A stretch of DNA of 64,000 bases from Euryarchaeota archaeon (GTDB lineage Archaea > Thermoplasmatota > SW-10-69-26 > JACQPN01): positions 62,001 to 126,000 of the forward strand of contig JACQPN010000009.1 in assembly GCA_016207515.1 (NCBI GenBank), written 5' to 3'. Of the stretch, positions 8,196 through 19,441 are shown in pieces. The notes under the pieces were generated by a model. That model was not told the DNA's origin, did no database searches, and was given only the letters and a program-made list of their open reading frames with translations. Numbering within the stretch: the first letter of the stretch is position 1; each line of letters opens with the position of its first letter. Both the position numbers and the translations under genes were made by a program.

Positions 8196-9449
8196 CTAGG
8201 CGGAGGCGAGGAGCGCTGCTGCGTCGAGCTTTCCATGGCCGAATTCTTCGTCCCAGCCGGCAGGCCCCATGTCGGTGGCGCTTGATTCAAGGGCCTCCTT
8301 GAGCGCCGTCGCGGTCATGCCGGGTTCCATGGCAAGGCGAAGGGCCGCGGCCCCGGCGACGAATGGTGCTGCGTACGAGGTCCCCGACGCGTAACCGTAG
8401 AAAACGCCCATCGACGAATCGGCGGTGGTGAGCGTCGTGTAGATCGCGTCGGCTGGTGCTGCGATGTCGACCTCGGACCCGAAGTTGCTCGACGACCAGC
8501 GTTCTTCGAGGATATCGGCCGGCAGCCCCGGGTCGGCCACATGCGGGAGCGGTTCCGGGACGGCCCGCTGCAGCCCTGAGACCGCCATCACGAGCGGCGA
8601 GTTCGCTGGGTAAAGGACTTCACGGTCGTCATTGCCCGCGGCGGCGATCATGAGGACGCTGTTGTTCGCCGCGTAGTCGAGCGCCTGGTCCACGATTGCG
8701 TCCGATCCCACGTACGCCCCGAGGCTCATTGAGATTATCCTGGCGCCGTTGTCGACCGCCCAGACTATTCCATCGCGTAGCGTCGTGCTGTTACTGGAAC
8801 ACCCTGTCGCGCTGTCGGCGGTCTTCACTATCATGAGGCTGGTCTTCGCCGCACCCGCTATTCCTTCCAAATTGTTCGAAACAGCGCCTAAGACCCCGGC
8901 GACCCGCGTTCCATGACCGCAATTGTCCGTAACGTCCGAATTGTTCCCTACGATGTTACGGCCGTGTTCGCCGCTTTGGCCGGTCCAGAGGTTGCCGGCG
9001 ATGTCAGGGTGCGTCGTCTCGACGCCGCTGTCGATTATCGCGACGACGATGGTGCTTGCGTCGGAGTTCACGTCCCATGCTTGCGTCGCATGGATGGATT
9101 GAAGGCCCCATTGCCTGACCATGAACGGGTCGTTTGTCAGGGGCGCACCCTGGAGGGCGTACGAGGTTTCTCGGGCGACGAAACGTGCCCCGGTGAGGCG
9201 CGCGATCTCCGAGTCCATGAGAGTGATTGGAACCGCGGCAGAGAGGGTCTTGGTGGCAGTTGAAATCTTCCCTACCCTGCCGCCGTGTTCCAAAATCACA
9301 TTGATGGTCTGCGAGAGTCCCGTCTCGCCGTAACCCATGACCAGGTCCCGCGTCGGAGCTGGCGGGACCAACGCCGCGGCGGCGGACGCGGCGATGATGC
9401 CGGTCGCTACGACGACGGCGATGAATGCGGTCGATAGGCTACGCTTCAT
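8196..9449 (-). CDS. Secreted subtilisin-like serine protease (S8)
   Basis: 417 residues from ATG 9447-9449. A signal peptide (residues 1 to about 27, ending ASAAAALV) is followed by an I9-like propeptide (about 40-100) and an S8 catalytic domain. The triad is Asp140 (IIDSGVE), His179 (CGHGTRVAG) and Ser358 (SGTSYAAPF); Asn273 of AAGND is the oxyanion residue. The protein should be exported and self-processed. TATTAATA at about 9481-9488 lies 32-39 nt before the start, supporting this Met over the longer open frame. No C-terminal anchor is seen, so it may be released. Confidence 0.92.
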   Translation of the reverse strand: MKRSLSTAFIAVVVATGIIAASAAAALVPPAPTRDLVMGYGETGLSQTINVILEHGGRVGKISTATKTLSAAVPITLMDSEIARLTGARFVARETSYALQGAPLTNDPFMVRQWGLQSIHATQAWDVNSDASTIVVAIIDSGVETTHPDIAGNLWTGQSGEHGRNIVGNNSDVTDNCGHGTRVAGVLGAVSNNLEGIAGAAKTSLMIVKTADSATGCSSNSTTLRDGIVWAVDNGARIISMSLGAYVGSDAIVDQALDYAANNSVLMIAAAGNDDREVLYPANSPLVMAVSGLQRAVPEPLPHVADPGLPADILEERWSSSNFGSEVDIAAPADAIYTTLTTADSSMGVFYGYASGTSYAAPFVAGAAALRLAMEPGMTATALKEALESSATDMGPAGWDEEFGHGKLDAAALLASA

Positions 9450-9664
9450 TACTGCCACCAGCCTCCATCTTTCAAAGCGGCTATTAATACCGCTTAGCGA
9501 ACAAGTGACGTCCAATGCGCTTAAATCGGTTATCGTGAAACCTTGGTGAATACTTGTGCAAGAGGGGAGACTGCGGCGGCAGGATGGCACCTGCGACCGA
9601 CGAAGTGCGCCCCTTCCACCGGCCTCGGGGAAAGACTCTTTGACCGCCCGGCGTTTTCACGCCC

Positions 9665-9919: not shown

Positions 9920-11308
9920 GTGGAACTCGAAGCGCGCGTCGCGCTCGTAAAGGAAGTCGGGGAGGAGATCGTCACCGAGGGGGAACTCCGCGCACTTTTG
10001 GCTGAAAAAGCCCACCCCATCGCCTACGACGGGTTCGAACCCTCCGGCACCGCCCACATCGCGCAAGGCGTCATGAGGGCGATAAACGTCAACAAGATGA
10101 CCCGCGCGGGCTGCAAGTTCAAGATGTTCGTCGCCGACTGGCACGCGTGGGCCAACAACAAGATGGGCGGCGATCTTGAGAAGATCAAGACGACTGGCGA
10201 GTACTTGATCGAGATCTGGAGAGCCTGCGGGATGGACCTCTCCAAGGTGGAGTTCGTCTGGGCGAGCGAACTCGTGAAGGACGAAGAGTACTGGAAAACA
10301 GTCATGAACATCGCGCGAGACTCAAGTCTTGACCGAATCCTGCGGACGACGCAGATAATGGGCCGAAGCGAGAAGGACAAGTTGAGCGCGGCGCAGATCC
10401 TATACCCGTGCATGCAGGCGGCGGACATCTTCCACCTGAAGGCCGACCTCACCCAACTTGGAATGGACCAGAGGAAAGTCAACATGCTCGCGAGAGAGGT
10501 CGGGCCGAAGCTGGGGTTTTGGAAGCCGGTGGTGGTGAGCCATCATATGTTGATGGGGTTGCAAAAGCCTCCGATTGAACTCTTCGACTGGCTCGATGCG
10601 TCCAAAACAATCACATCACCTCTCAGACACTGTGAGGAATTCTTCGGCCCGCAGCTGCCGACCGGAGGGCTTACAACCATACGCCGCGCCGTCGAGAAAA
10701 TCAGTCTGGCGAGCGACTGGCAGGTTATCATCAAAGAGACGGATCGCGTCGTAGAGAACGCTGAATTTTTCAGAGATTCTTTAGCGAGAGATCCGGCGAC
10801 TGCGCCTCAGAAACTCCAGGCAATTCAGGAATATGTCGAAGCGGCCAAGGAAGCGGTCCGACTTGCCGACAGGGAAGAGGACAACTATTGGAACTTTGTC
10901 GGCACCGAAATGAAAATGAGCAAATCCAACCCGGACTCCGCAATCTTCATGACCGACACGCCGGAGCAGGTCGCGTCGAAGATCAAGAGAGCCTTCTGCC
11001 CCGATAAGCAAGCGACCGAGAACCCGATCCTCGAATACTACGGCCACATCATCTTCGAGCGGTTCCCGAGCGTGAAGATCGAGCGACCGGCGAAGTTCGG
11101 TGGGGACCTCGAATTTCCTGGAACGCGGGAAGGCTGGCTGGATTTCGAGCGCGCCTTCGTCGAAGGGAAGTTACACCCCGCCGACGCGAAGGCCGGCGCA
11201 ACCAAGCACATCAATCTACTCCTCGATCCCGTGCGCGAGCATTTCGAGAAGAACGAGAAGGCGCGGGAGTTGAAGGCGCAGGTGGAGAGTTTTAGGGTGA
11301 CGAGATGA
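9920..11308 (+). CDS. tyrS: Tyrosyl-tRNA synthetase with a ~110-residue internal insertion
   Basis: 462 residues; archaeal TyrRS is normally about 300-375. The enzyme charges tRNA-Tyr with tyrosine in the cytosol. Class I signatures: YDGFEPSGTAHIAQG (36-50, HIGH-like), MDQRK (182-186), KMSKS (332-336), and the C-terminal KFGGDL block (392-397). In the Methanocaldococcus enzyme only a few residues separate the helix matching HHMLMGL (208-214) from KMSKS. Here 117 residues intervene (about 216-330, nt 10565-10909), of unrecognised fold and from DNA visibly richer in A/T than the flanks. The start is fixed by the upstream TATA box. The end overlaps a GIY-YIG ORF by 4 nt, and copies of its 3' end lie downstream. 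Confidence 0.9.
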   Translation: MELEARVALVKEVGEEIVTEGELRALLAEKAHPIAYDGFEPSGTAHIAQGVMRAINVNKMTRAGCKFKMFVADWHAWANNKMGGDLEKIKTTGEYLIEIWRACGMDLSKVEFVWASELVKDEEYWKTVMNIARDSSLDRILRTTQIMGRSEKDKLSAAQILYPCMQAADIFHLKADLTQLGMDQRKVNMLAREVGPKLGFWKPVVVSHHMLMGLQKPPIELFDWLDASKTITSPLRHCEEFFGPQLPTGGLTTIRRAVEKISLASDWQVIIKETDRVVENAEFFRDSLARDPATAPQKLQAIQEYVEAAKEAVRLADREEDNYWNFVGTEMKMSKSNPDSAIFMTDTPEQVASKIKRAFCPDKQATENPILEYYGHIIFERFPSVKIERPAKFGGDLEFPGTREGWLDFERAFVEGKLHPADAKAGATKHINLLLDPVREHFEKNEKARELKAQVESFRVTR

Positions 11309-11748
11309 AACGGATCGAAGCTTGGATCGGCGTGAACGAAGCCGGCATTGAGACGGTTCCTAGGGATGCGGCGGGGGTTTACCGTGTTTACGCGCAAAAT
11401 CCCATAGCGCGGTTACGCGGCAAAGATTCGCGCGGCCTTCTACTGGTGGGCGAGTCGAACTACCTACGGAGTCGTCTCATGGGTTTCATCTATGCTGTAT
11501 CCGGCAAGAAAGAATCGCACAGAGGGGGAGAGAGGTTTCACCAGCTCCATCTTAGCCGCCAATTCCCAATTGCACGGTTGCGAATCAGGTATACCACAAC
11601 TGGTTCAGGCAAGGCCGGCAAGGCGGCAGCGAGGTCGCTCCAAGACAAGGAGCTTATCCGCTACCAAGACAAGTTCGGCGAACTTCCGCCGTTGAACAAC
11701 AACGGAGGCGTCTCATGGAAAAACAGGCCCTTGCGAAAATCCGGGTGA
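11305..11748 (+). CDS. GIY-YIG nuclease-like protein
   Basis: 147 residues, starting in an ATGA overlap with tyrS. The N-terminal half carries the GIY-YIG pattern: AGVYRVYA, then GLLLVGESNYLRSRL about 20 residues later, with the conserved Arg. The C-terminal YQDKFGELPPLN resembles small stand-alone GIY-YIG proteins of bacterial genomes. The fold cuts DNA with a single metal ion; roles include homing and restriction. Middle segments are less GC-rich than the surroundings, suggesting recent acquisition. It stands between tyrS and a duplicated tyrS 3' fragment, as a mobile module would. Confidence 0.65.
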   Translation: MKRIEAWIGVNEAGIETVPRDAAGVYRVYAQNPIARLRGKDSRGLLLVGESNYLRSRLMGFIYAVSGKKESHRGGERFHQLHLSRQFPIARLRIRYTTTGSGKAGKAAARSLQDKELIRYQDKFGELPPLNNNGGVSWKNRPLRKSG

Positions 11749-11784
11749 GGGGGGCCGCGAGCTTGCGTTCGCGGGCTTCCGCCG

Positions 11785-11951
11785 ATTTGGAGCGCACCTT
11801 TGTATATGGGAAGTTACACCACGCCGACCCAAAAGCAGGCGCCGCGAAGCACATCAACCTCCTCCTCGACCCCGTGCGGGAGCACTTCGAGAAGAACGAG
11901 AAGGTGAGGGAGTTGAAGGCGCAGGTGGAGAGTTTCAACGTGACGAGGTAG
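11785..11951 (+). pseudogene. Duplicated tyrS 3'-end fragment, copy B
   Basis: Encodes ADLERTFVYGKLHHADPKAG, then the tail ending ESFNVTR, about 55 residues matching TyrRS residues from about 408 to its C-terminus, with its own TAG. It lacks every catalytic part. An open frame joins it to an ATG at 11715 inside the GIY-YIG gene. An inverted repeat (CCGCGA/TCGCGG) lies at the junction just before it. Confidence 0.8.
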
Positions 11952-11973
11952 ACCGTTTTCTGTATCCGCCTAT

Positions 11974-12333
11974 TCACCGGTCATTGAACCGCCTCCGGTG
12001 AAGGTCCGGAAGTTTTGGGTACGTCGCGTCCGTTCGCCGAGCGATCGCCGTAACGAGAACAAGTTTTTCGCTTGGCAGCAGGGCCAGACTCAACCGGTAT
12101 TTTCCCACCCGTAGCCGGTACGAGCCTGGGATCCCCGTGCCCGCAAGGGGGACGAGGTCCGGGACCGGGGTGAGTGTTCCCGACGCGAAGACCCTCCTGG
12201 GATCCACGGAAGCGATGCGGTCGAGTTGAGCCGTGATACGCGCGAGGGCGTCCCGCACCCGATCCGCGTCGTCAACGACGAGGTTCGAGAACTCGCGTTG
12301 GAACCCTACGTGGGCGGAGATCCTCCACGACAC
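11974..12333 (-). CDS. RelE/ParE-like toxin of a type II toxin-antitoxin pair
   Basis: 119 residues from GTG 12331-12333. The sequence has the compact RelE layout: an N-terminal helical region (ADRVRDALARITAQLDRIA), then the beta-strands SYRLRVGKYRLSLALLPSEKLVLVTAIARR. The GxYRLRVGxYRL core is typical of RelE/HigB-type mRNA interferases and ParE gyrase poisons. It begins 1 nt after the stop of the antitoxin-like gene on the same strand. It lies antisense to the surrounding tyrS fragments, between copies B and C. Confidence 0.72.
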   Translation of the reverse strand: MSWRISAHVGFQREFSNLVVDDADRVRDALARITAQLDRIASVDPRRVFASGTLTPVPDLVPLAGTGIPGSYRLRVGKYRLSLALLPSEKLVLVTAIARRTDATYPKLPDLHRRRFNDR

Positions 12334-12334
12334 G

Positions 12335-12541
12335 CTAGGCCGGGAAGTCGCCCCACTTCTTGCTCTTTCGGATTTCTTTCGCGACCCGCGCCTGCCATTC
12401 CTTGTAAAGGGCCTGGAATTCATCGGGTTCGATTAGCTGCATCATGCGCGTGATGACGTCCTCGTAGGTCATGCCGTCGATCTTGTAGCGCTTTAGCTTG
12501 AGGCGCGTCTCTTCGGAGAGTTGGACACTCGAAAGCGCCAT
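12335..12541 (-). CDS. Antitoxin-like small protein
   Basis: 68 residues from the ATG at 12539-12541: MALSSVQLSEETRLKLKRYK, then GMTYEDVITRMMQLIEP. The start resembles ribbon-helix-helix antitoxins (a beta-strand with Ser/Gln, then a Glu-rich helix, then TYEDVI), found in archaeal pairs with RelE-like partners. The basic C-terminal tail (KEIRKSKKWGDFPA) would bind the toxin. An AT-rich stretch upstream (12545-12595) probably holds the promoter. Immediate adjacency to the toxin supports the pair. Confidence 0.72.
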   Translation of the reverse strand: MALSSVQLSEETRLKLKRYKIDGMTYEDVITRMMQLIEPDEFQALYKEWQARVAKEIRKSKKWGDFPA

Positions 12542-12629
12542 GGAGACACTATAGAACCTATTGTTTGTCCATGGTATTTGATGTTTTCGATGCCGGTCAA
12601 GTGGGACGACGGAGAGTAGGTCCAGCCTC

Positions 12630-13052
12630 GACCCCGCCATCTTCATGACCGGCACGCCCGAACAGGTCGCAGCCAAGATCAAGAAGACCTTCTGCTCCGA
12701 AAAGCAGGCCGCCGAGAACCCGATCCTCGAATACCACCGCCACATCATCTTCGAGCGCTTCCCGAGCGTGAAGATCGAGAGACCGGCCAAGTTCGGTGGG
12801 GACCTCGAGTTCAAGTCTTACACAGAGCTCGAAGCCGCTTTCGTCGAAGGGAAGCTACATCCCGCCGACGCGAAGGCCGGCGCGGCCAAGCACATCAACC
12901 TCCTCCTCGACCCCGTGCGCCGGCACTTCGAGAAGAACGAGACGGCGTGGATTCGCGATGCTCGTCCCCTTCGCCTCGGCGAGACACCGGTCTCGCCTTC
13001 GGCGGCGCGGGAGTTGAAGGCGCAGGTGGAGAGTTTCAAGGTGACCCGTTAG
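12630..13052 (+). pseudogene. Duplicated tyrS 3'-end fragment, copy C
   Basis: Encodes DPAIFMTGTPEQVAAKIKK through ESFKVTR, matching TyrRS from about residue 339 to the C-terminus with conservative changes and the native-looking FKSYTELEAAF in place of the divergent segment in TyrRS. The HIGH half and KMSKS are absent. It carries a 20-residue net in-frame insertion near the end (TAWIRDARPLRLGETPVSPSA replacing one Lys), rich in inverted repeats. It may be the displaced original 3' end of tyrS. Confidence 0.82.
12949..12967 (-). repeat. Mini-hairpin inside the insertion of tyrS copy C
   Basis: Reverse strand: GGAC-GAGCATCGCGA-ATCC, three base pairs plus a C/A mismatch next to a GAGC-NNN-GCGA loop. 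A second, perfect inverted repeat GGCGAGAC-ACCG-GTCTCGCC follows at 12978-12997. Both belong to the ~60-nt insertion. Confidence 0.45.
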
Positions 13053-13197: not shown

Positions 13198-13339
13198 CGC
13201 GGCCCCGGCCGCTTCGCGTCCTGTGACGACCCGGGCCTTCTTCATTCGCGTGCCGACTCTTCGTTCTGAATAATTGGGGGGGTCGCCGAATGGTTCAGGC
13301 TGCCTGCAAAGGACACCGAATTTTCCGATGTAAGGCTAG

Positions 13340-16300
13340 CTATGCCCGACCGCCGGGCGTCCCATCCTTCGCCTTCGCCGGCCGCCTCTCCATCTCGTCC
13401 ACAAGCGCCTTGACGACCACCCACGGGCGGACCGCGGGCGAAACCTCGGACTGATCGGAGACGTCGCCCTGCTCCGGGCTATGTGGCGCGACGTTCTCTG
13501 CTACCGCGAACGTTTCGTTCTTCGGCTCGAAGACGACGGCGAACCCTTCGCGATACATGGATTCGGACGTCATCGCCGCGGTTTCCGCCGGTTCGTCTTC
13601 GAAAGGTGCGCGCGAAGCGACGCCTTTCATTTCAGCAGCGCTTCGTGCCGTCACGACGGCGTTCTCCGGCATCTTTTCGGCAAGACGTTCGCCGACGCGG
13701 GTCGCGACGGCCTCGGACGAGCGTAGCCTCGAGGATAGGAGGATGTCGCCGCTCGATCGCGCGGTGGTCACATGCGTGAACCCGGCGTCCTCCAGCCAGC
13801 GACGTAGGTCGGTGGGCGAGAACCTGCTGGTCTCTTCCACGTATGGACCGCGAAGGAACACGACGTACCGGCCTTCGCGTCGCCAGACGAGGGCGAGGAT
13901 CAAGAAACCGACGGCCGGGATGAGAAGGAGCAGGAACCCGCCCTCCTGAAGAGACCATGGGCTTGGGGGAACGGTGGTTCCGCCGCCGCCCGAAGAGGAG
14001 GTCGCGAAGGTGAAGAACGTCGTCAGGTGATCGCTCCACACGACGAGGCCGTTTCCCACGTCGATCTTGCATTCCTTGCCTGCGGGGATGTTGGTGGGGG
14101 CCGTCGCGGAATCGCAGACGAGAAAGATCTCAGTGGGGCTTCCCCCCGCCGTCCTGAAGCCGACCCGTCGTCCGGCTTCAGCCGGAAGCAGTATGCGGAC
14201 CGGGTGGTCGAAAGTCAACGTCGCCCCCGGCTCTCCGACCTCAATCGCGAGTAGTGTGGTGCCGCCATCGGGGGCCACGACCGCGGAGTTCGGCAGAAGC
14301 ATGGGCAGGATCATCTTTCCGTCCCATTGAGGATTGGAACTACCGATCGTCGTCTTCGCGGAGATATTCACCTCGAACGCGTTCGACGCGTTGTCCGAAT
14401 CCCGAAGGAGTCCGACCTTCTCGACCACCTTCACGGTGTGTGACGAGGCGGCCTGGTCGACAAGCAATCCCATGTCGAGGGTAAGCGCAGCATCGTCGGG
14501 CACGGATGCATCGATGACCACGTCTCGCAGGATGTTCGTGCCCGTCTCCGGCCGGCCACAGACAAGGATAAGTCGGACCGATCCTGCGGCGGTGGCGTAA
14601 GACGTGATGTTGACGTCCACCGCAGGCCGATTCTGGGAATCACAAAGTGCGCCCGGAACACCGACCGGACCCTCGGGTGTTGTGACCTCAAGGACCGTGA
14701 TGTCGACGACCAGTACTGATGAGCCGCCACGGCCGTCCTCGGCCTTGAAGGAGACGGCGTAGGCTTGCGGCCTCGCATCGTCGTACGTCGGCGTCCATTG
14801 GAGGACGTTGTCGAAGGGCTTGAAGTTCGCCGAATTCCCGGGAGGTAGTGCTTGAAGGTCCGCGGCGACGGTGACGTTGTCCATGTCGGGGTCGATCGCG
14901 GCCACGCCGAGTATCAAGGGCTGTCCCTCGTAGATCGTTATCTTGGTGAGGCGTGACTTGAAAACGGGATCGTGGTTTGTGTCGTTGCCTTCGAGTATCG
15001 TGACGGCCGCTGCACTTGGCGAACCGATGATGTAAGGGCCGGGCGCGAGCGTCAAGATCACGGTCTCGCCGGGATCCGTCACAGCGTCATCCACAGGCTT
15101 GACATTCACGTCGACGAAACCGAAGCCGTCCGGGATCGAGGCGGTCGCAGCACCGCTCGTGCCTTCGAAGAGGTAATCGCCGCCTTGGGCGGCCGTGCCT
15201 CCCACCACGAATGCGACCGAGAGGACGCCCGTCGTCCCGCCGCCCGTCCGCACTATCCTGAACGTGCCCGGCGAGCCGTCGTCCTCGAGCGCAAAGCCAT
15301 CCGTTGTTGTCACGTTCACGGTTGCGTTCCCGGTGCCCCCGGTCCCTGAGAAAGGCCCGGCCGCGTCTTCGTCGACTATGGTGGCGGCGACTTTTTGGAC
15401 GCCGGCCTCCACGGCGTTCGTGACGCTCTTGATGTCTATGACGACCGTCTCGTCGGGCTCGAACACCGAATCAAGGTGCCCTGTTAGCGTGATCGTCCCC
15501 GTCTTTGAGCCTGCCGGGATGACGATGACGGCGCCGCTTCGTCCGTAATCGCCGGAGAACGACGCGGTTCCCGTGAAGGTGAGGTTTACGGTTACCGATT
15601 TTGAGGCGAGGTTTGAGAGCGTCGCTGTGACGATGGCCGAGCCGCCGTCTTCTTTCATGGGGCTTCCACTGAGACTGAGAGTCACACTGGGCCCCACGCT
15701 TACGTCGTCGTCGGTGATCACGGCAGTGCCTTGCTGTGTGCCGGATTCGAGGGCGTTCGTGACGCTACTGATGTCCACCACTATCGTCTCCGTCCCCTCG
15801 ACGTTGGAATCCTGGATCGCGGTGAGGGTGATGGCGCCCGACGTGGCGCCCGCGAAGATCACGACCGAGGTTCCGCTAGGCGTGTAATCCGTGGTGGCGA
15901 ACGCCGTCCCCGTGAAGGCGAGGTAGACCGTGACGGTCTGGTTCGTAGGCGCGGAGAGGGTGAGGGCCAAGTAGGCGACCCCGGCGTTTTCCGAAATGGG
16001 GCTACCCGTAAGATCCAGGGTTACAGTTGGCAACGAGTCGCCGCCACCTACGCCGGTGGAAGGCTCGTCGTCATCCGTGATGACGGCAGTGACCTGCTGT
16101 GTCCCCGCTTCGATGGCGTTCGTGACGCTGCTGATGTCGACGATGACGGTCTCATCCGCCTCGTCCACGGAATCCGAGGCCGCCCAGATCATGATGGTGC
16201 TCGTGAGCCCCGTGGGACCGATTACGATTGTCGTATCGCTTGGGGTGTAGTCACCCGTAAGATTCGCCGTCCCTGTGAACGCCAGGAAAACCGTGACGGT

Positions 16301-19213
16301 CTGGTTGGTCGTTTTCGACAGTGTGGCCGTCACGTAGGCTATTCCGCCTGTTTCCGGCATCGGGCTGTCCGTCAGGCTCAAAGTCACGGTCGGGGTGATG
16401 CCATCATCGTCCGTGATCGTGGCGGTCACTTGTTGTGTGCCGACTTCGACCGCGTTGGTGACGTTGCTTATGTCCACGACGATGGTCTCGCCGGGATCGA
16501 CTACCGTATCTTGGACCGCTCCGAGCGAGACGGTGCCTGTCGTCGTCCCGATGCTGATAACGATCGAGGTCGCGCTTCGAGTGTAATCACTCGTGAGGAG
16601 GGCCGTCCCGGAGAACGTCAGGTCGACAGTGACGGTCTGCGTCGTCGCCGCCGATAAGGTCGCCCAGACGGTGGCCACGCCTGCGGCTTCCGCCATCGGG
16701 CTTCCGACGAGACTCAACGTTACGTTCGGCAACGCCCCATCGCCGTCTCCATCGTCGTCTATGATGGTGGCCGTGACCTGTTGGGTCCCGGCCTCTACAT
16801 CGCCGGAGACGCTGACGATATCGACGATGATAGTCTCGTCGCCCTCGATGAGCGAGTCTTGGATGGCGGTCAGCGTCGCGGTCCCAGAACTTTGACCGGG
16901 ATTGATGGTGATGGATGCGCTGCTACGCGAATAATCGGTCGAAAAGATCGCGACCCCTGTGAATCCGAGGTTTACGGTGACCGTGTGGGTCGTGGCCCCC
17001 GGCAGGCTTGCAGTGAGTGTGGCCATCCCGGCGGCCTCTGCCATGGGGCTCCCGGCAAGGCTCAACGTCACGCCAGACACGTCGTTGTCCGCGATGGTGA
17101 CGGTAGCCGCACTTGGCGAGCCCAGCGTGTAGGCGCCGAAGGGGGAGCCTTGCAGCGTCATGATCGACGTCTCGGCGGCTTCGATCGAGGCGTCGTCCAC
17201 CGGCGTCACGGTCACGTTGGCCGCGAGCGCCCCCGCGGGGATCGTGACCGTTGAGGAACTCGCATTGCCACTGAGAGCGTAATCGACGACATTAGTGGCG
17301 GTGCCCGTGATCGCGAAACCGACGGTGAGGGCGCTTGTGGTCGCCCCGGTGCGCGCCACCATGAACGTCCCCGTACCGGGACCGGTCTCGGAAGCGCTGG
17401 CATCCGACGCCGTGACAGTGACGACAGGCCCGTCGTTGTCCGCTATTGTGACGGTGTCATTATCGGGCGAGCCGATCGTGTACGAGCCCGTCCCGAGTGT
17501 CAAGACCACAGTTTCGGCTGGCTCGAACGCCGAATCATCCACAGGAGTGACCGTGACGTTCACAGAACTCGCGCCAATGGGGATGATGGCGGTCGTCAAG
17601 GTCGCGTTGCCCGAAAGGATGTAGTCGGCCGGATTCGAGGCCGAACCGCCGAGCGTGAAATTTATGGTCAGGGCCGTCGCAGTCGTCCCGTTACGTGTGA
17701 TCGTGAGCTTGCCTGGGTCTGGTCCGGACTCGGAGGCGTTCCCATCGGTCGCGCTCACGGACACCGTCGGGGCCGTTGCCCCGAACTGGTAGCACGGACC
17801 GAATTCGGACGTGCTTCCGCCGGGGGCCGTGGCCGTGGCGGTAAGGAACCTTCCCTGGGGGATCGGGCCGCTATTAGTGTAATTGAATGGCGCTATCCCG
17901 CTCGGGTCGCCCACGAAAAGATCCATGGAACCCAAGTATGTCTCGCCTTCGCCGTAACCGCTCGTGTCGCACGCAGGATTGGAAAAGAAGTCCAAACGGT
18001 AGGGCATCGGCGCCATGGTGCTGAGGTTGCCCACGATGGTGTTCCCGCCCGTCACGGCGGAAATGCTCGGGAAATTCTGGAGACCGTTCGGGCCCGTGTC
18101 GGGGTCGGTAGCATCGTTTTGCGTGACACCATTGTCGGCGAGGTCGATGCCGAGGCCAGAGTTGTTGTGGATGCTGTTGCCCCGGATGGTTATGCGGGTG
18201 GAGGTCCCCGTGACCGCTACGCCGTCATGCGTGCCCTTCGTGAACGCGATGACGTTCCCTTCGCCGGGCAGAGTCCCGCCCACGGTTGCGTCAGGCACGT
18301 TCACGAAGACGATGGCTTCCGTGTTGCCCATGTTCGCGCCCGAGTGCATCGCTACGCCGATCCTGTTCCCTTGGGTCCGCGATCCAGTGGATCCTGAGCC
18401 CGTGATCTCGATCGCGAATCCGTTGTCGCCGATGACGTTTCCCTCGCCGGCGATGCTCCCACCGATGATGGCGTCCGGCGTGTCTTCGATGACGATGCCG
18501 TGGGACTGGCCATTGGAGAGGCGGCTGTCGCCCGTGGCGGAAAGGCCGATGATGTTCCCTTTGATTACGGGCGCAGATGCGACCTCGACGCTGATACCGT
18601 AACTGTTCCCACTGATCAAATTGCCCTCCCCGGTGCCCGCGCCCCCGATGGTAACGTTCGAAGAACCGTTGATCCTGACGCCATAGTCGATCGGGACGGC
18701 GTTCATTCCCGTTGAATCGGTGCCGATGAAGTTGCCTTGGATCACGTGTCCGTTACCGCGCACGATGCGGATACCAGCGTTTCCGGGGTTCGGCTGGTCG
18801 TGGATGATGAGCCCTTTGATTGTGGACCCCGCTCCGTCATGGTCGATCTTTAGGATGCTGATGCCCGCGCCCGAGGTGCCTTGTATCTGGATGACCGGTG
18901 CCCCGACCGCCCAACCCGGCTGCGTCGTGCCGTCGATCGTAACGGGTGCCGTTATCACCGGCAACCCGCCGCTTGGGCTTACGATCCAGTGGACGCCGCT
19001 ACCGGGTATGTTGAAGCAGATGAACGACGAGTCGGGATTGGCGTTCGCATCGAGCATGGCCTGCTTGAGGCTACCCGTACCCGATTGGTTCGTGTTCGTG
19101 ACGCAATCTCCGATCGCTGCAGTGGCCAGCATGCCCCCGGGGCCAGTCACACCGAGAAGAAGGATACCCGCGACGAGTGCGATACGCCGATCCGTCGTGC
19201 GGCTACCGTTCAT
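13340..19213 (-). CDS. Giant Calx-beta repeat surface protein with beta-helix and C-terminal membrane anchor
   Basis: About 1,957 residues from ATG 19211-19213, which gives a signal peptide (RRIALVAGILLLGV); upstream in-frame starts add up to 55 non-signal residues. Order: right-handed beta-helix region (about 60-400, repeats such as GEGNLISGNSYGI and VIQGNFIG); eight Calx-beta domains (about 480-1410), the middle five close tandem paralogues of about 115 residues each ending in a DDD or DND calcium-site motif; a cadherin/Ig-like domain (DPDMDNVTVAAD); a stalk; one transmembrane helix (LLLLIPAVGFLILALVW, about 1755-1775); and a ~180-residue charged tail. By family it should be a calcium-binding cell-surface adhesin. 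The M14 carboxypeptidase gene lies upstream on the same strand. Confidence 0.88.
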   Translation of the reverse strand: MNGSRTTDRRIALVAGILLLGVTGPGGMLATAAIGDCVTNTNQSGTGSLKQAMLDANANPDSSFICFNIPGSGVHWIVSPSGGLPVITAPVTIDGTTQPGWAVGAPVIQIQGTSGAGISILKIDHDGAGSTIKGLIIHDQPNPGNAGIRIVRGNGHVIQGNFIGTDSTGMNAVPIDYGVRINGSSNVTIGGAGTGEGNLISGNSYGISVEVASAPVIKGNIIGLSATGDSRLSNGQSHGIVIEDTPDAIIGGSIAGEGNVIGDNGFAIEITGSGSTGSRTQGNRIGVAMHSGANMGNTEAIVFVNVPDATVGGTLPGEGNVIAFTKGTHDGVAVTGTSTRITIRGNSIHNNSGLGIDLADNGVTQNDATDPDTGPNGLQNFPSISAVTGGNTIVGNLSTMAPMPYRLDFFSNPACDTSGYGEGETYLGSMDLFVGDPSGIAPFNYTNSGPIPQGRFLTATATAPGGSTSEFGPCYQFGATAPTVSVSATDGNASESGPDPGKLTITRNGTTATALTINFTLGGSASNPADYILSGNATLTTAIIPIGASSVNVTVTPVDDSAFEPAETVVLTLGTGSYTIGSPDNDTVTIADNDGPVVTVTASDASASETGPGTGTFMVARTGATTSALTVGFAITGTATNVVDYALSGNASSSTVTIPAGALAANVTVTPVDDASIEAAETSIMTLQGSPFGAYTLGSPSAATVTIADNDVSGVTLSLAGSPMAEAAGMATLTASLPGATTHTVTVNLGFTGVAIFSTDYSRSSASITINPGQSSGTATLTAIQDSLIEGDETIIVDIVSVSGDVEAGTQQVTATIIDDDGDGDGALPNVTLSLVGSPMAEAAGVATVWATLSAATTQTVTVDLTFSGTALLTSDYTRSATSIVISIGTTTGTVSLGAVQDTVVDPGETIVVDISNVTNAVEVGTQQVTATITDDDGITPTVTLSLTDSPMPETGGIAYVTATLSKTTNQTVTVFLAFTGTANLTGDYTPSDTTIVIGPTGLTSTIMIWAASDSVDEADETVIVDISSVTNAIEAGTQQVTAVITDDDEPSTGVGGGDSLPTVTLDLTGSPISENAGVAYLALTLSAPTNQTVTVYLAFTGTAFATTDYTPSGTSVVIFAGATSGAITLTAIQDSNVEGTETIVVDISSVTNALESGTQQGTAVITDDDVSVGPSVTLSLSGSPMKEDGGSAIVTATLSNLASKSVTVNLTFTGTASFSGDYGRSGAVIVIPAGSKTGTITLTGHLDSVFEPDETVVIDIKSVTNAVEAGVQKVAATIVDEDAAGPFSGTGGTGNATVNVTTTDGFALEDDGSPGTFRIVRTGGGTTGVLSVAFVVGGTAAQGGDYLFEGTSGAATASIPDGFGFVDVNVKPVDDAVTDPGETVILTLAPGPYIIGSPSAAAVTILEGNDTNHDPVFKSRLTKITIYEGQPLILGVAAIDPDMDNVTVAADLQALPPGNSANFKPFDNVLQWTPTYDDARPQAYAVSFKAEDGRGGSSVLVVDITVLEVTTPEGPVGVPGALCDSQNRPAVDVNITSYATAAGSVRLILVCGRPETGTNILRDVVIDASVPDDAALTLDMGLLVDQAASSHTVKVVEKVGLLRDSDNASNAFEVNISAKTTIGSSNPQWDGKMILPMLLPNSAVVAPDGGTTLLAIEVGEPGATLTFDHPVRILLPAEAGRRVGFRTAGGSPTEIFLVCDSATAPTNIPAGKECKIDVGNGLVVWSDHLTTFFTFATSSSGGGGTTVPPSPWSLQEGGFLLLLIPAVGFLILALVWRREGRYVVFLRGPYVEETSRFSPTDLRRWLEDAGFTHVTTARSSGDILLSSRLRSSEAVATRVGERLAEKMPENAVVTARSAAEMKGVASRAPFEDEPAETAAMTSESMYREGFAVVFEPKNETFAVAENVAPHSPEQGDVSDQSEVSPAVRPWVVVKALVDEMERRPAKAKDGTPGGRA

Positions 19214-19441
19214 TGGGAAGCTTTCCGCGCGGGACCCGGCATCGGTATCATGCGGCTCGGCCATGGTTGGTCCCACTACATGAACCTGCGCGTCACTTCT
19301 TCCGAGGGCCGACCCTGGCTCATGGGCGTCACGGCGGAATCGTGGTGGCAGGACGTATGACACGGCAACGGCCTGCAACGTTTTCCCTCAGGAATCGACG
19401 CGCATGCGTTCGGGGGAACGTCGCCGCGGCGGCACGGGTCG

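What the first reader, a model, noticed from the sequence alone, without database searches (positions are those of the whole stretch)
9920..13052. tyrS locus with three 3' ends, a GIY-YIG gene and an antisense toxin-antitoxin pair
TyrRS is followed by a GIY-YIG-like ORF in ATGA overlap, then two extra in-frame copies of the tyrS 3' end (11785-11951 and 12630-13052), with a RelE-like/RHH-like pair between them on the other strand. Each module ends in a tyrS C-terminus (ESFRVTR, ESFNVTR, ESFKVTR). This is the layout expected if mobile modules inserted in the 3' part of an essential gene while carrying a replacement 3' end, displacing the old one downstream each time. Such target regeneration is known for integrases at tRNA genes. 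A nuclease-linked version at an aminoacyl-tRNA synthetase would be new to me.
Basis: partly seen in the sequence, partly recalled or inferred. Interest (0 to 1): 0.72.

Follow-up and report, generated by a model that had tools for sequence, protein, structure and literature searches.

The report
Stacked cargo inserts at tyrS end
In this archaeon the gene for the essential enzyme tyrosyl-tRNA synthetase has apparently been invaded twice at its far end by small gene packages, each time keeping a working gene and pushing an old, decaying gene end downstream, and a similar pattern, often with toxin-antitoxin genes, turns up at the same gene in very distantly related small bacteria.

Summary
One intact tyrS (9920-11308) is followed by an unrelated ORF, a 168-nt tyrS end (c2), an antisense RelE-like/VapB-like pair and a 438-nt tyrS end (c3). 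The two places where this tyrS departs from order-level relatives, a 112-codon loop insert before KMSKS and a short scar, lie at the left edges of c3 and c2. This points to two nested insertions, each leaving a complete tyrS. c3 is decaying; c1 is constrained.

One Patescibacteria order shows the same layout: displaced tyrS ends in nine genomes, seven with cargo (VapBC-like, AbiE-like, metalloprotease-like, unknown), two bare footprints, plus empty-site relatives. Controls at other genes were negative apart from ordinary tandem copies.

The nuclease link is not supported: the ORF is GIY-YIG-like by motif only, has no detected homologue, and the other units have no recognised nuclease or recombinase. 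Regenerating insertion at gene ends is known (e14/icd, CIME accretion, fungal mitochondrial mORFs). New, as far as I could find: tyrS as the target, tiny units without a recognised recombinase and often with toxin-antitoxin genes, and recurrence in Archaea and Patescibacteria. The exchange enzyme is unknown.

The parts
9920..11308 (+). tyrS, archaeal-type tyrosyl-tRNA synthetase, 462 aa, GTG start; its current 3' end is copy c1
   Evidence: Pfam PF00579 1e-48, NCBIfam PRK08560 2e-105; only full-length copy in the genome
10574..10909 (+). 112-codon in-frame insert in the loop before KMSKS, GC3 0.60 against 0.82 for the tyrS N-terminal part; ends 9 nt before the KMSKS position at which c3 begins
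   Evidence: absent in order-level relatives L005, L006, L034, L036; no other match in own genome; GC3
11117..11140 (+). scar PGTREGWL (8 residues where c3 and relatives have 4) at the position where c2's homology begins
   Evidence: protein-guided alignment
11305..11748 (+). P0002, 147-aa ORF, ATGA-coupled to tyrS; GIY-YIG-like by motif only; GC3 0.63
   Evidence: no family hit; weak profile match on LLLVGESNYLRSRL; no homologue in 390 phylum genomes, IMG/VR, phages or plasmids
11784..11951 (+). c2, displaced tyrS 3' end, 55 codons and stop (DLERTF..ESFNVTR)
   Evidence: 84.8% nt identity to c1 over 55 codons
11974..12333 (-). RelE-like toxin gene
   Evidence: phrog_1213 RelE-like 6e-5; weak relatives in G004 and G015
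12335..12541 (-). DUF7557/VapB-like antitoxin gene, 68 aa
   Evidence: PF24434 5e-7, above cut-off; VAPB_antitox 1e-3, below cut-off
12615..13052 (+). c3, displaced tyrS 3' end from KMSKS to stop, decaying, with an in-frame ~60-nt insert near 12943-13003
   Evidence: 83.7% nt identity to c1; changes unique to c3 evenly spread over codon positions

Best explanation
Small cargo units have entered the 3' part of tyrS at least twice. Each insertion is a reciprocal exchange between the chromosomal tyrS end and a tyrS end carried on the incoming DNA, as in Campbell-type integration. tyrS keeps an intact end, the cargo lies behind it, and the older end is displaced downstream, where it decays. In the window the toxin-antitoxin unit came first (displacing c3) and the ORF unit second (displacing c2), because a newer unit always lands nearest tyrS. 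Shown: the nested anatomy, coincidence of scars and boundaries, decay of c3, recurrence at tyrS in Patescibacteria with other cargo, and empty sites there. Inferred: the exchange step itself, its enzyme (host homologous recombination, or a recombinase acting in trans; none was recognised in the units), the order of events in the window, and that toxin-antitoxin cargo persists because its loss is punished.
For: Both departures of this tyrS from relatives lie at the left edges of c3 and c2. Four order-level relatives have one intact tyrS end, and among the listed matches of 380 phylum genomes only the own genome shows same-contig end copies (table truncated). Spacers are compact: one ORF, then one antisense pair, each followed by a tyrS end. 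GC3 of the loop insert and P0002 differs from the host while all ends are host-like. Polarised changes by codon position: c1 [5,2,13], c3 [7,7,5]. Patescibacteria cases L084, L110, L114, L115, L116, L124, L139 with cargo and L118, L125 as footprints. Sisters L110 and L114 carry different cargo; the tree needs 6 changes, at least 4 forced by well-supported branches. Empty-site relatives L119 and L120. 12 C-terminal-motif hits downstream on the tyrS strand against 0-2 in each control. 565 other ORFs: hits only in L085 and L107, two spanning the whole query and one apparently antisense to the same tandem copy.
Against: No close relative of the window's genome with a true empty site is available; the nearest are order level, and synteny downstream of tyrS was not shown to be conserved. 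The replacement ends are not clearly foreign. No recombinase was recognised, and the window's boundaries (-168, -440) differ from those in Patescibacteria (often about -47), so the two groups may not share one mechanism. The origin of the 112-codon insert is not explained. The Patescibacteria cases were first noticed because of second hits, although most of the order was then scanned.
Confidence: 0.6

Rival explanations
1. A more specific version: decayed integrative elements (CIME-like). An integrase-bearing element used the tyrS 3' end as attB, its attP carried the replacement end, the integrase was lost, and later elements accreted in tandem at the same site.
For: In Patescibacteria several displaced ends start at the same A-tract about 47 nt from the stop (L114, L115, L116, L124, L125, L139), and L084 has a perfect 86-nt repeat. 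Crenarchaeal att sites of 29-69 bp are reported. e14 in icd duplicates 165 bp with 12 changes, much like c2. CIME accretion is described.
Against: No integrase was recognised in any unit, by Pfam on the main ORFs and by reading. The cargo stretches are only about 0.5-2.1 kb. Displaced ends vary from about 16 to 438 nt overall.
Confidence: 0.25
2. Local partial tandem duplication of the tyrS end, followed by independent insertion of genes between the copies and decay, with no mobile unit.
For: All three ends have host-like GC3; c3 shows relaxed evolution only.
Against: The cargo is not duplicated with the ends. The tyrS scars coincide with the copy boundaries. In Patescibacteria cargo differs between sisters and empty sites exist. 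Partial end duplication was not seen at other genes.
Confidence: 0.1
3. Homing-nuclease-driven gene-end replacement as in fungal mitochondrial mORFs: P0002 cuts tyrS and repair installs the end linked to it.
For: The layout inserted end, ORF, displaced native end matches the atp6, atp9, cox2 and nad3 cases, one with a GIY-YIG ORF. P0002 has a GIY-YIG-like LVGES..LRSR motif.
Against: The nuclease identity is not confirmed. The toxin-antitoxin unit here and the Patescibacteria units have no recognised nuclease. The replacement ends are not foreign as they are in fungi.
Confidence: 0.05

Closest known systems
Prophage e14 in E. coli icd (Hill 1989, as described in PMC6379469 and PMC11148124)
   Same: Insertion inside the 3' part of a protein-coding gene; the element supplies a replacement 3' end; the old 165-bp end stays downstream with a few differences
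   Different: e14 is a prophage with its own integrase; the units here are tiny, no recombinase was recognised, and they stack
CIMEs and tandem accretion at gene 3' ends (reviewed in PMC5704250)
   Same: Elements without integrase flanked by copies of the target gene end, stacked at one site
   Different: CIMEs derive from ICEs or IMEs and retain att sites; here no parent element was found, the target is tyrS, and cargo is one gene or operon
Fungal mitochondrial mobile ORFs that replace gene C-termini (PMC3630166)
   Same: Inserted C-terminus, ORF, then displaced native C-terminus; one case has a GIY-YIG ORF
   Different: Those inserted ends are foreign and linked to endonucleases; here the ends are host-like and the nuclease is unconfirmed or absent
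[quoted passage not shown]
   Same: Archaeal elements at protein-gene ends; tandem casposons occur
   Different: Those elements include proviruses and casposons with integration enzymes; the words tyrosyl and synthetase do not occur in that paper's main text

Membership tests
Integrase-type integrative element (e14/CIME kind) | copies of the target gene end flank the insert as direct repeats | tested here: met
Integrase-type integrative element (e14/CIME kind) | target gene restored to full length | tested here: met
   tyrS open for 462 codons with conserved ESFxVTR end; c1 third-position bias
Integrase-type integrative element (e14/CIME kind) | recombinase gene in the element, or a related complete element with one (CIMEs may lack it) | tested here: not met
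   none recognised in the window units or Patescibacteria cargo; no tyrS-bearing viral contig found
Integrase-type integrative element (e14/CIME kind) | fixed crossover core | tested here: inconclusive
   shared -47 A-tract in six Patescibacteria ends, other lengths elsewhere, -168 and -440 in the window
Fungal mORF-type homing element | endonuclease ORF next to the inserted end | tested here: inconclusive
   P0002 GIY-YIG-like only by motif; single-sequence AlphaFold model unusable, pLDDT 32
Fungal mORF-type homing element | inserted end foreign, displaced end native | tested here: not met
   GC3 host-like for all ends; c1 and c3 equally distant from L034 in the KMSKS segment
Type II toxin-antitoxin (RelE/VapB-like pair) | adjacent antitoxin and toxin genes of known families | tested here: met
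   toxin match is weak, antitoxin is above the Pfam cut-off only for DUF7557
Type II toxin-antitoxin (RelE/VapB-like pair) | toxicity neutralised by the partner | not testable with these tools
   needs expression in a laboratory strain

The most novel reading that the evidence does not exclude
A class of minimal 'tail cassettes' (one gene or operon, often toxin-antitoxin, plus one tyrS 3' end) that excise and re-enter at tyrS through the tyrS end itself, without a recombinase of their own, in both Archaea and Patescibacteria, stacking like integron cassettes behind an essential gene.
Probability: 0.25. Interest if true: 0.8.

Novelty: new variant of a known kind. Interest (0 to 1): 0.58.

Why it matters
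Toxin-antitoxin genes move between chromosomes by routes that are mostly unclear when no transposase or integrase is present. A single essential gene end that repeatedly receives them, in two domains, gives a concrete site at which to look for circles and for the enzyme involved. It also warns that tyrS 3' ends can be recombinant and should be treated with care in phylogenies.

Tried and rejected
P0002 homologues: none in 390 phylum genomes, IMG/VR, phages or plasmids; single-sequence AlphaFold gave pLDDT 32 and was not searched further; phmmer against PDB gave only E=1.4. tyrS relatives in viral contigs: none. The 60-nt insert in c3 is not a clear genome repeat. The 112-codon insert has no other match in the genome; inserts at the same loop in L033, L035, L037 and some phylum members look unrelated. 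A class-wide search of Patescibacteria gave no further clear cases with this query. The AbiE-like pair is often but not always next to a tyrS end: L126 has it 1.7 kb away without a displaced end. Failed calls with no result: 35, 43, 65, 84. Literature searches for tyrS as an insertion site found nothing; the library lacks most subscription journals.

Full report
What is there. The window lies in a 2.67-Mb archaeal genome bin (25 contigs, 98% complete). tyrS at 9920-11308 is the only full-length copy. Its stop overlaps the start of a 147-aa ORF (P0002) as ATGA. Then come a 168-nt tyrS end (c2, 11784-11951), an antisense pair (toxin 11974-12333, antitoxin 12335-12541), and a 438-nt tyrS end (c3, 12615-13052), followed by tRNA-Trp. 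The repeats are strong: 83.7% nt identity c1-c3 over 125 codons and 84.8% c1-c2 over 55.

What the relatives show. Four order-level relatives (L005, L006, L034, L036) have a TyrRS of usual length, with roughly 15 residues between GLQxPP and KMSKS. The window's TyrRS has 112 codons there, and c3 begins at KMSKS. Where c2 begins, c1 alone has PGTREGWL instead of four residues. So the two departures of the working gene sit at the edges of the two displaced ends, as expected for two insertions, the older one leaving c3 and the younger one c2. Among 380 phylum genomes the own genome was the only listed one with same-contig end copies; the printed table was truncated, so this is not exhaustive.

Which end is old. 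Changes polarised by L034 and L005 are [5,2,13] by codon position for c1 and [7,7,5] for c3: c1 evolved as a gene, c3 as a relic. c2 is ambiguous. GC3 is 0.82 for the N-terminal part, about 0.79-0.89 for the ends, 0.60 for the 112-codon insert and 0.63 for P0002. The ends therefore look host-like; only the loop insert and P0002 look foreign by composition. This is unlike the fungal mitochondrial cases, where the inserted end is foreign.

The same site elsewhere. Scanning the loci from the genome scan turned up two further tyrS genes with displaced ends, both in Patescibacteria: L110 (66 nt, 82% identical, with a MazE/AbrB-type antitoxin and a split PIN-domain ORF between) and L084 (86 nt, identical, with a 440-aa ORF between). 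A search of that order (83 genomes) and retrieval of most tyrS loci gave L114 (AbiE-like pair, two clear displaced ends and a possible third), L115 (metalloprotease-like ORF), L116 and L124 (AbiE-like pair whose toxin frame runs into the tyrS end), L139 (VapBC-like and AbiE-like pairs in series), and the cargo-free footprints L118 and L125. The AbiE-like toxin matches AbiEii (8.6e-5) and DUF6036.

Controls. A C-terminal motif was found 12 times downstream on the tyrS strand, twice on the other strand, and 0 and 1 times upstream; the 12 include two loci fetched twice and one likely chance hit. Among 565 other ORFs in these loci, hits occurred only in L085 and L107: two span the whole 150-nt query, as tandem gene copies do, and the third (114 nt) appears to be antisense to the same tandem copy. 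On a tyrS core tree the eight placeable positives need 6 changes, at least 4 forced by well-supported branches. L119 and L120 have the flank that follows the displaced ends of L110 and L114 starting 43-196 nt after their own tyrS stop, with no cargo: empty sites. For L084, L124, L115 and L139 synteny was too poor to test this.

How it may work. A reciprocal exchange between a tyrS end on incoming DNA and the chromosomal end gives exactly this product, and repeated exchange gives a stack with the youngest unit next to tyrS. The enzyme is not known. In Patescibacteria six displaced ends start at the same A-tract near -47, which hints at a fixed crossover and thus a recombinase acting in trans. 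In the window the boundaries are at -168 and -440, which fits homologous recombination better. The two groups share the target gene and the architecture; a shared mechanism is inference. Toxin-antitoxin cargo would resist loss by recombination between the ends, which may explain why it is common here; this too is inference.

The nuclease idea. P0002 has GVY, then LLLVGESNYLRSRL, and a late E and N, as in GIY-YIG domains, but it scores only 3.4 bits to a local GIY-YIG profile, within the range of shuffled sequences, and has no hit in any family library. I therefore call it GIY-YIG-like. Since no nuclease of the homing kind was recognised in the other units, one is not needed for the pattern.

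Comparison with what is known. Insertion with regeneration of a protein-coding gene end is known from e14/icd (165 bp, 12 changes), Thaumarchaeota elements, CIME accretion and fungal mitochondrial mORFs. I found no report of tyrS as such a site, within a library that lacks most subscription journals. The finding is best filed as a new variant of a known kind.

Limits. Nearly all genomes are metagenome bins. The Patescibacteria cases were first noticed because of second hits, then extended to most of the order. The window's own case has no same-genus comparison. The 112-codon insert remains unexplained.

Noticed in passing
window 10574-10909: 112-codon in-frame insert of odd composition in TyrRS right before KMSKS; unrelated inserts of similar size sit at the same loop in L033, L035, L037 and some phylum members.
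   Followed up: partly
L116 4057-5563: A unit flanked by two tyrS ends (about 42 and 15 residues) with an AbiE-like pair between, but no tyrS upstream and no other tyrS match found in that genome.
   Followed up: partly
L126 4510-5708: AbiE-like pair 1.7 kb downstream of tyrS without a displaced tyrS end, so the linkage is not strict.
   Followed up: partly
window 13340-19378: 2012-aa ORF on the minus strand, apparently with Calx-beta-like repeats, probably a surface protein (read by eye, not searched).
   Followed up: no
window 8196-9590: Subtilisin-like serine protease ORF on the minus strand, upstream of tyrS (read by eye).
   Followed up: no
window 13279-13352: Sequence resembling a tRNA-Cys, not called by ARAGORN; unverified.
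   Followed up: no
window 12943-13003: In-frame ~60-nt insert inside the displaced end c3; only weak partial matches elsewhere in the genome.
   Followed up: partly
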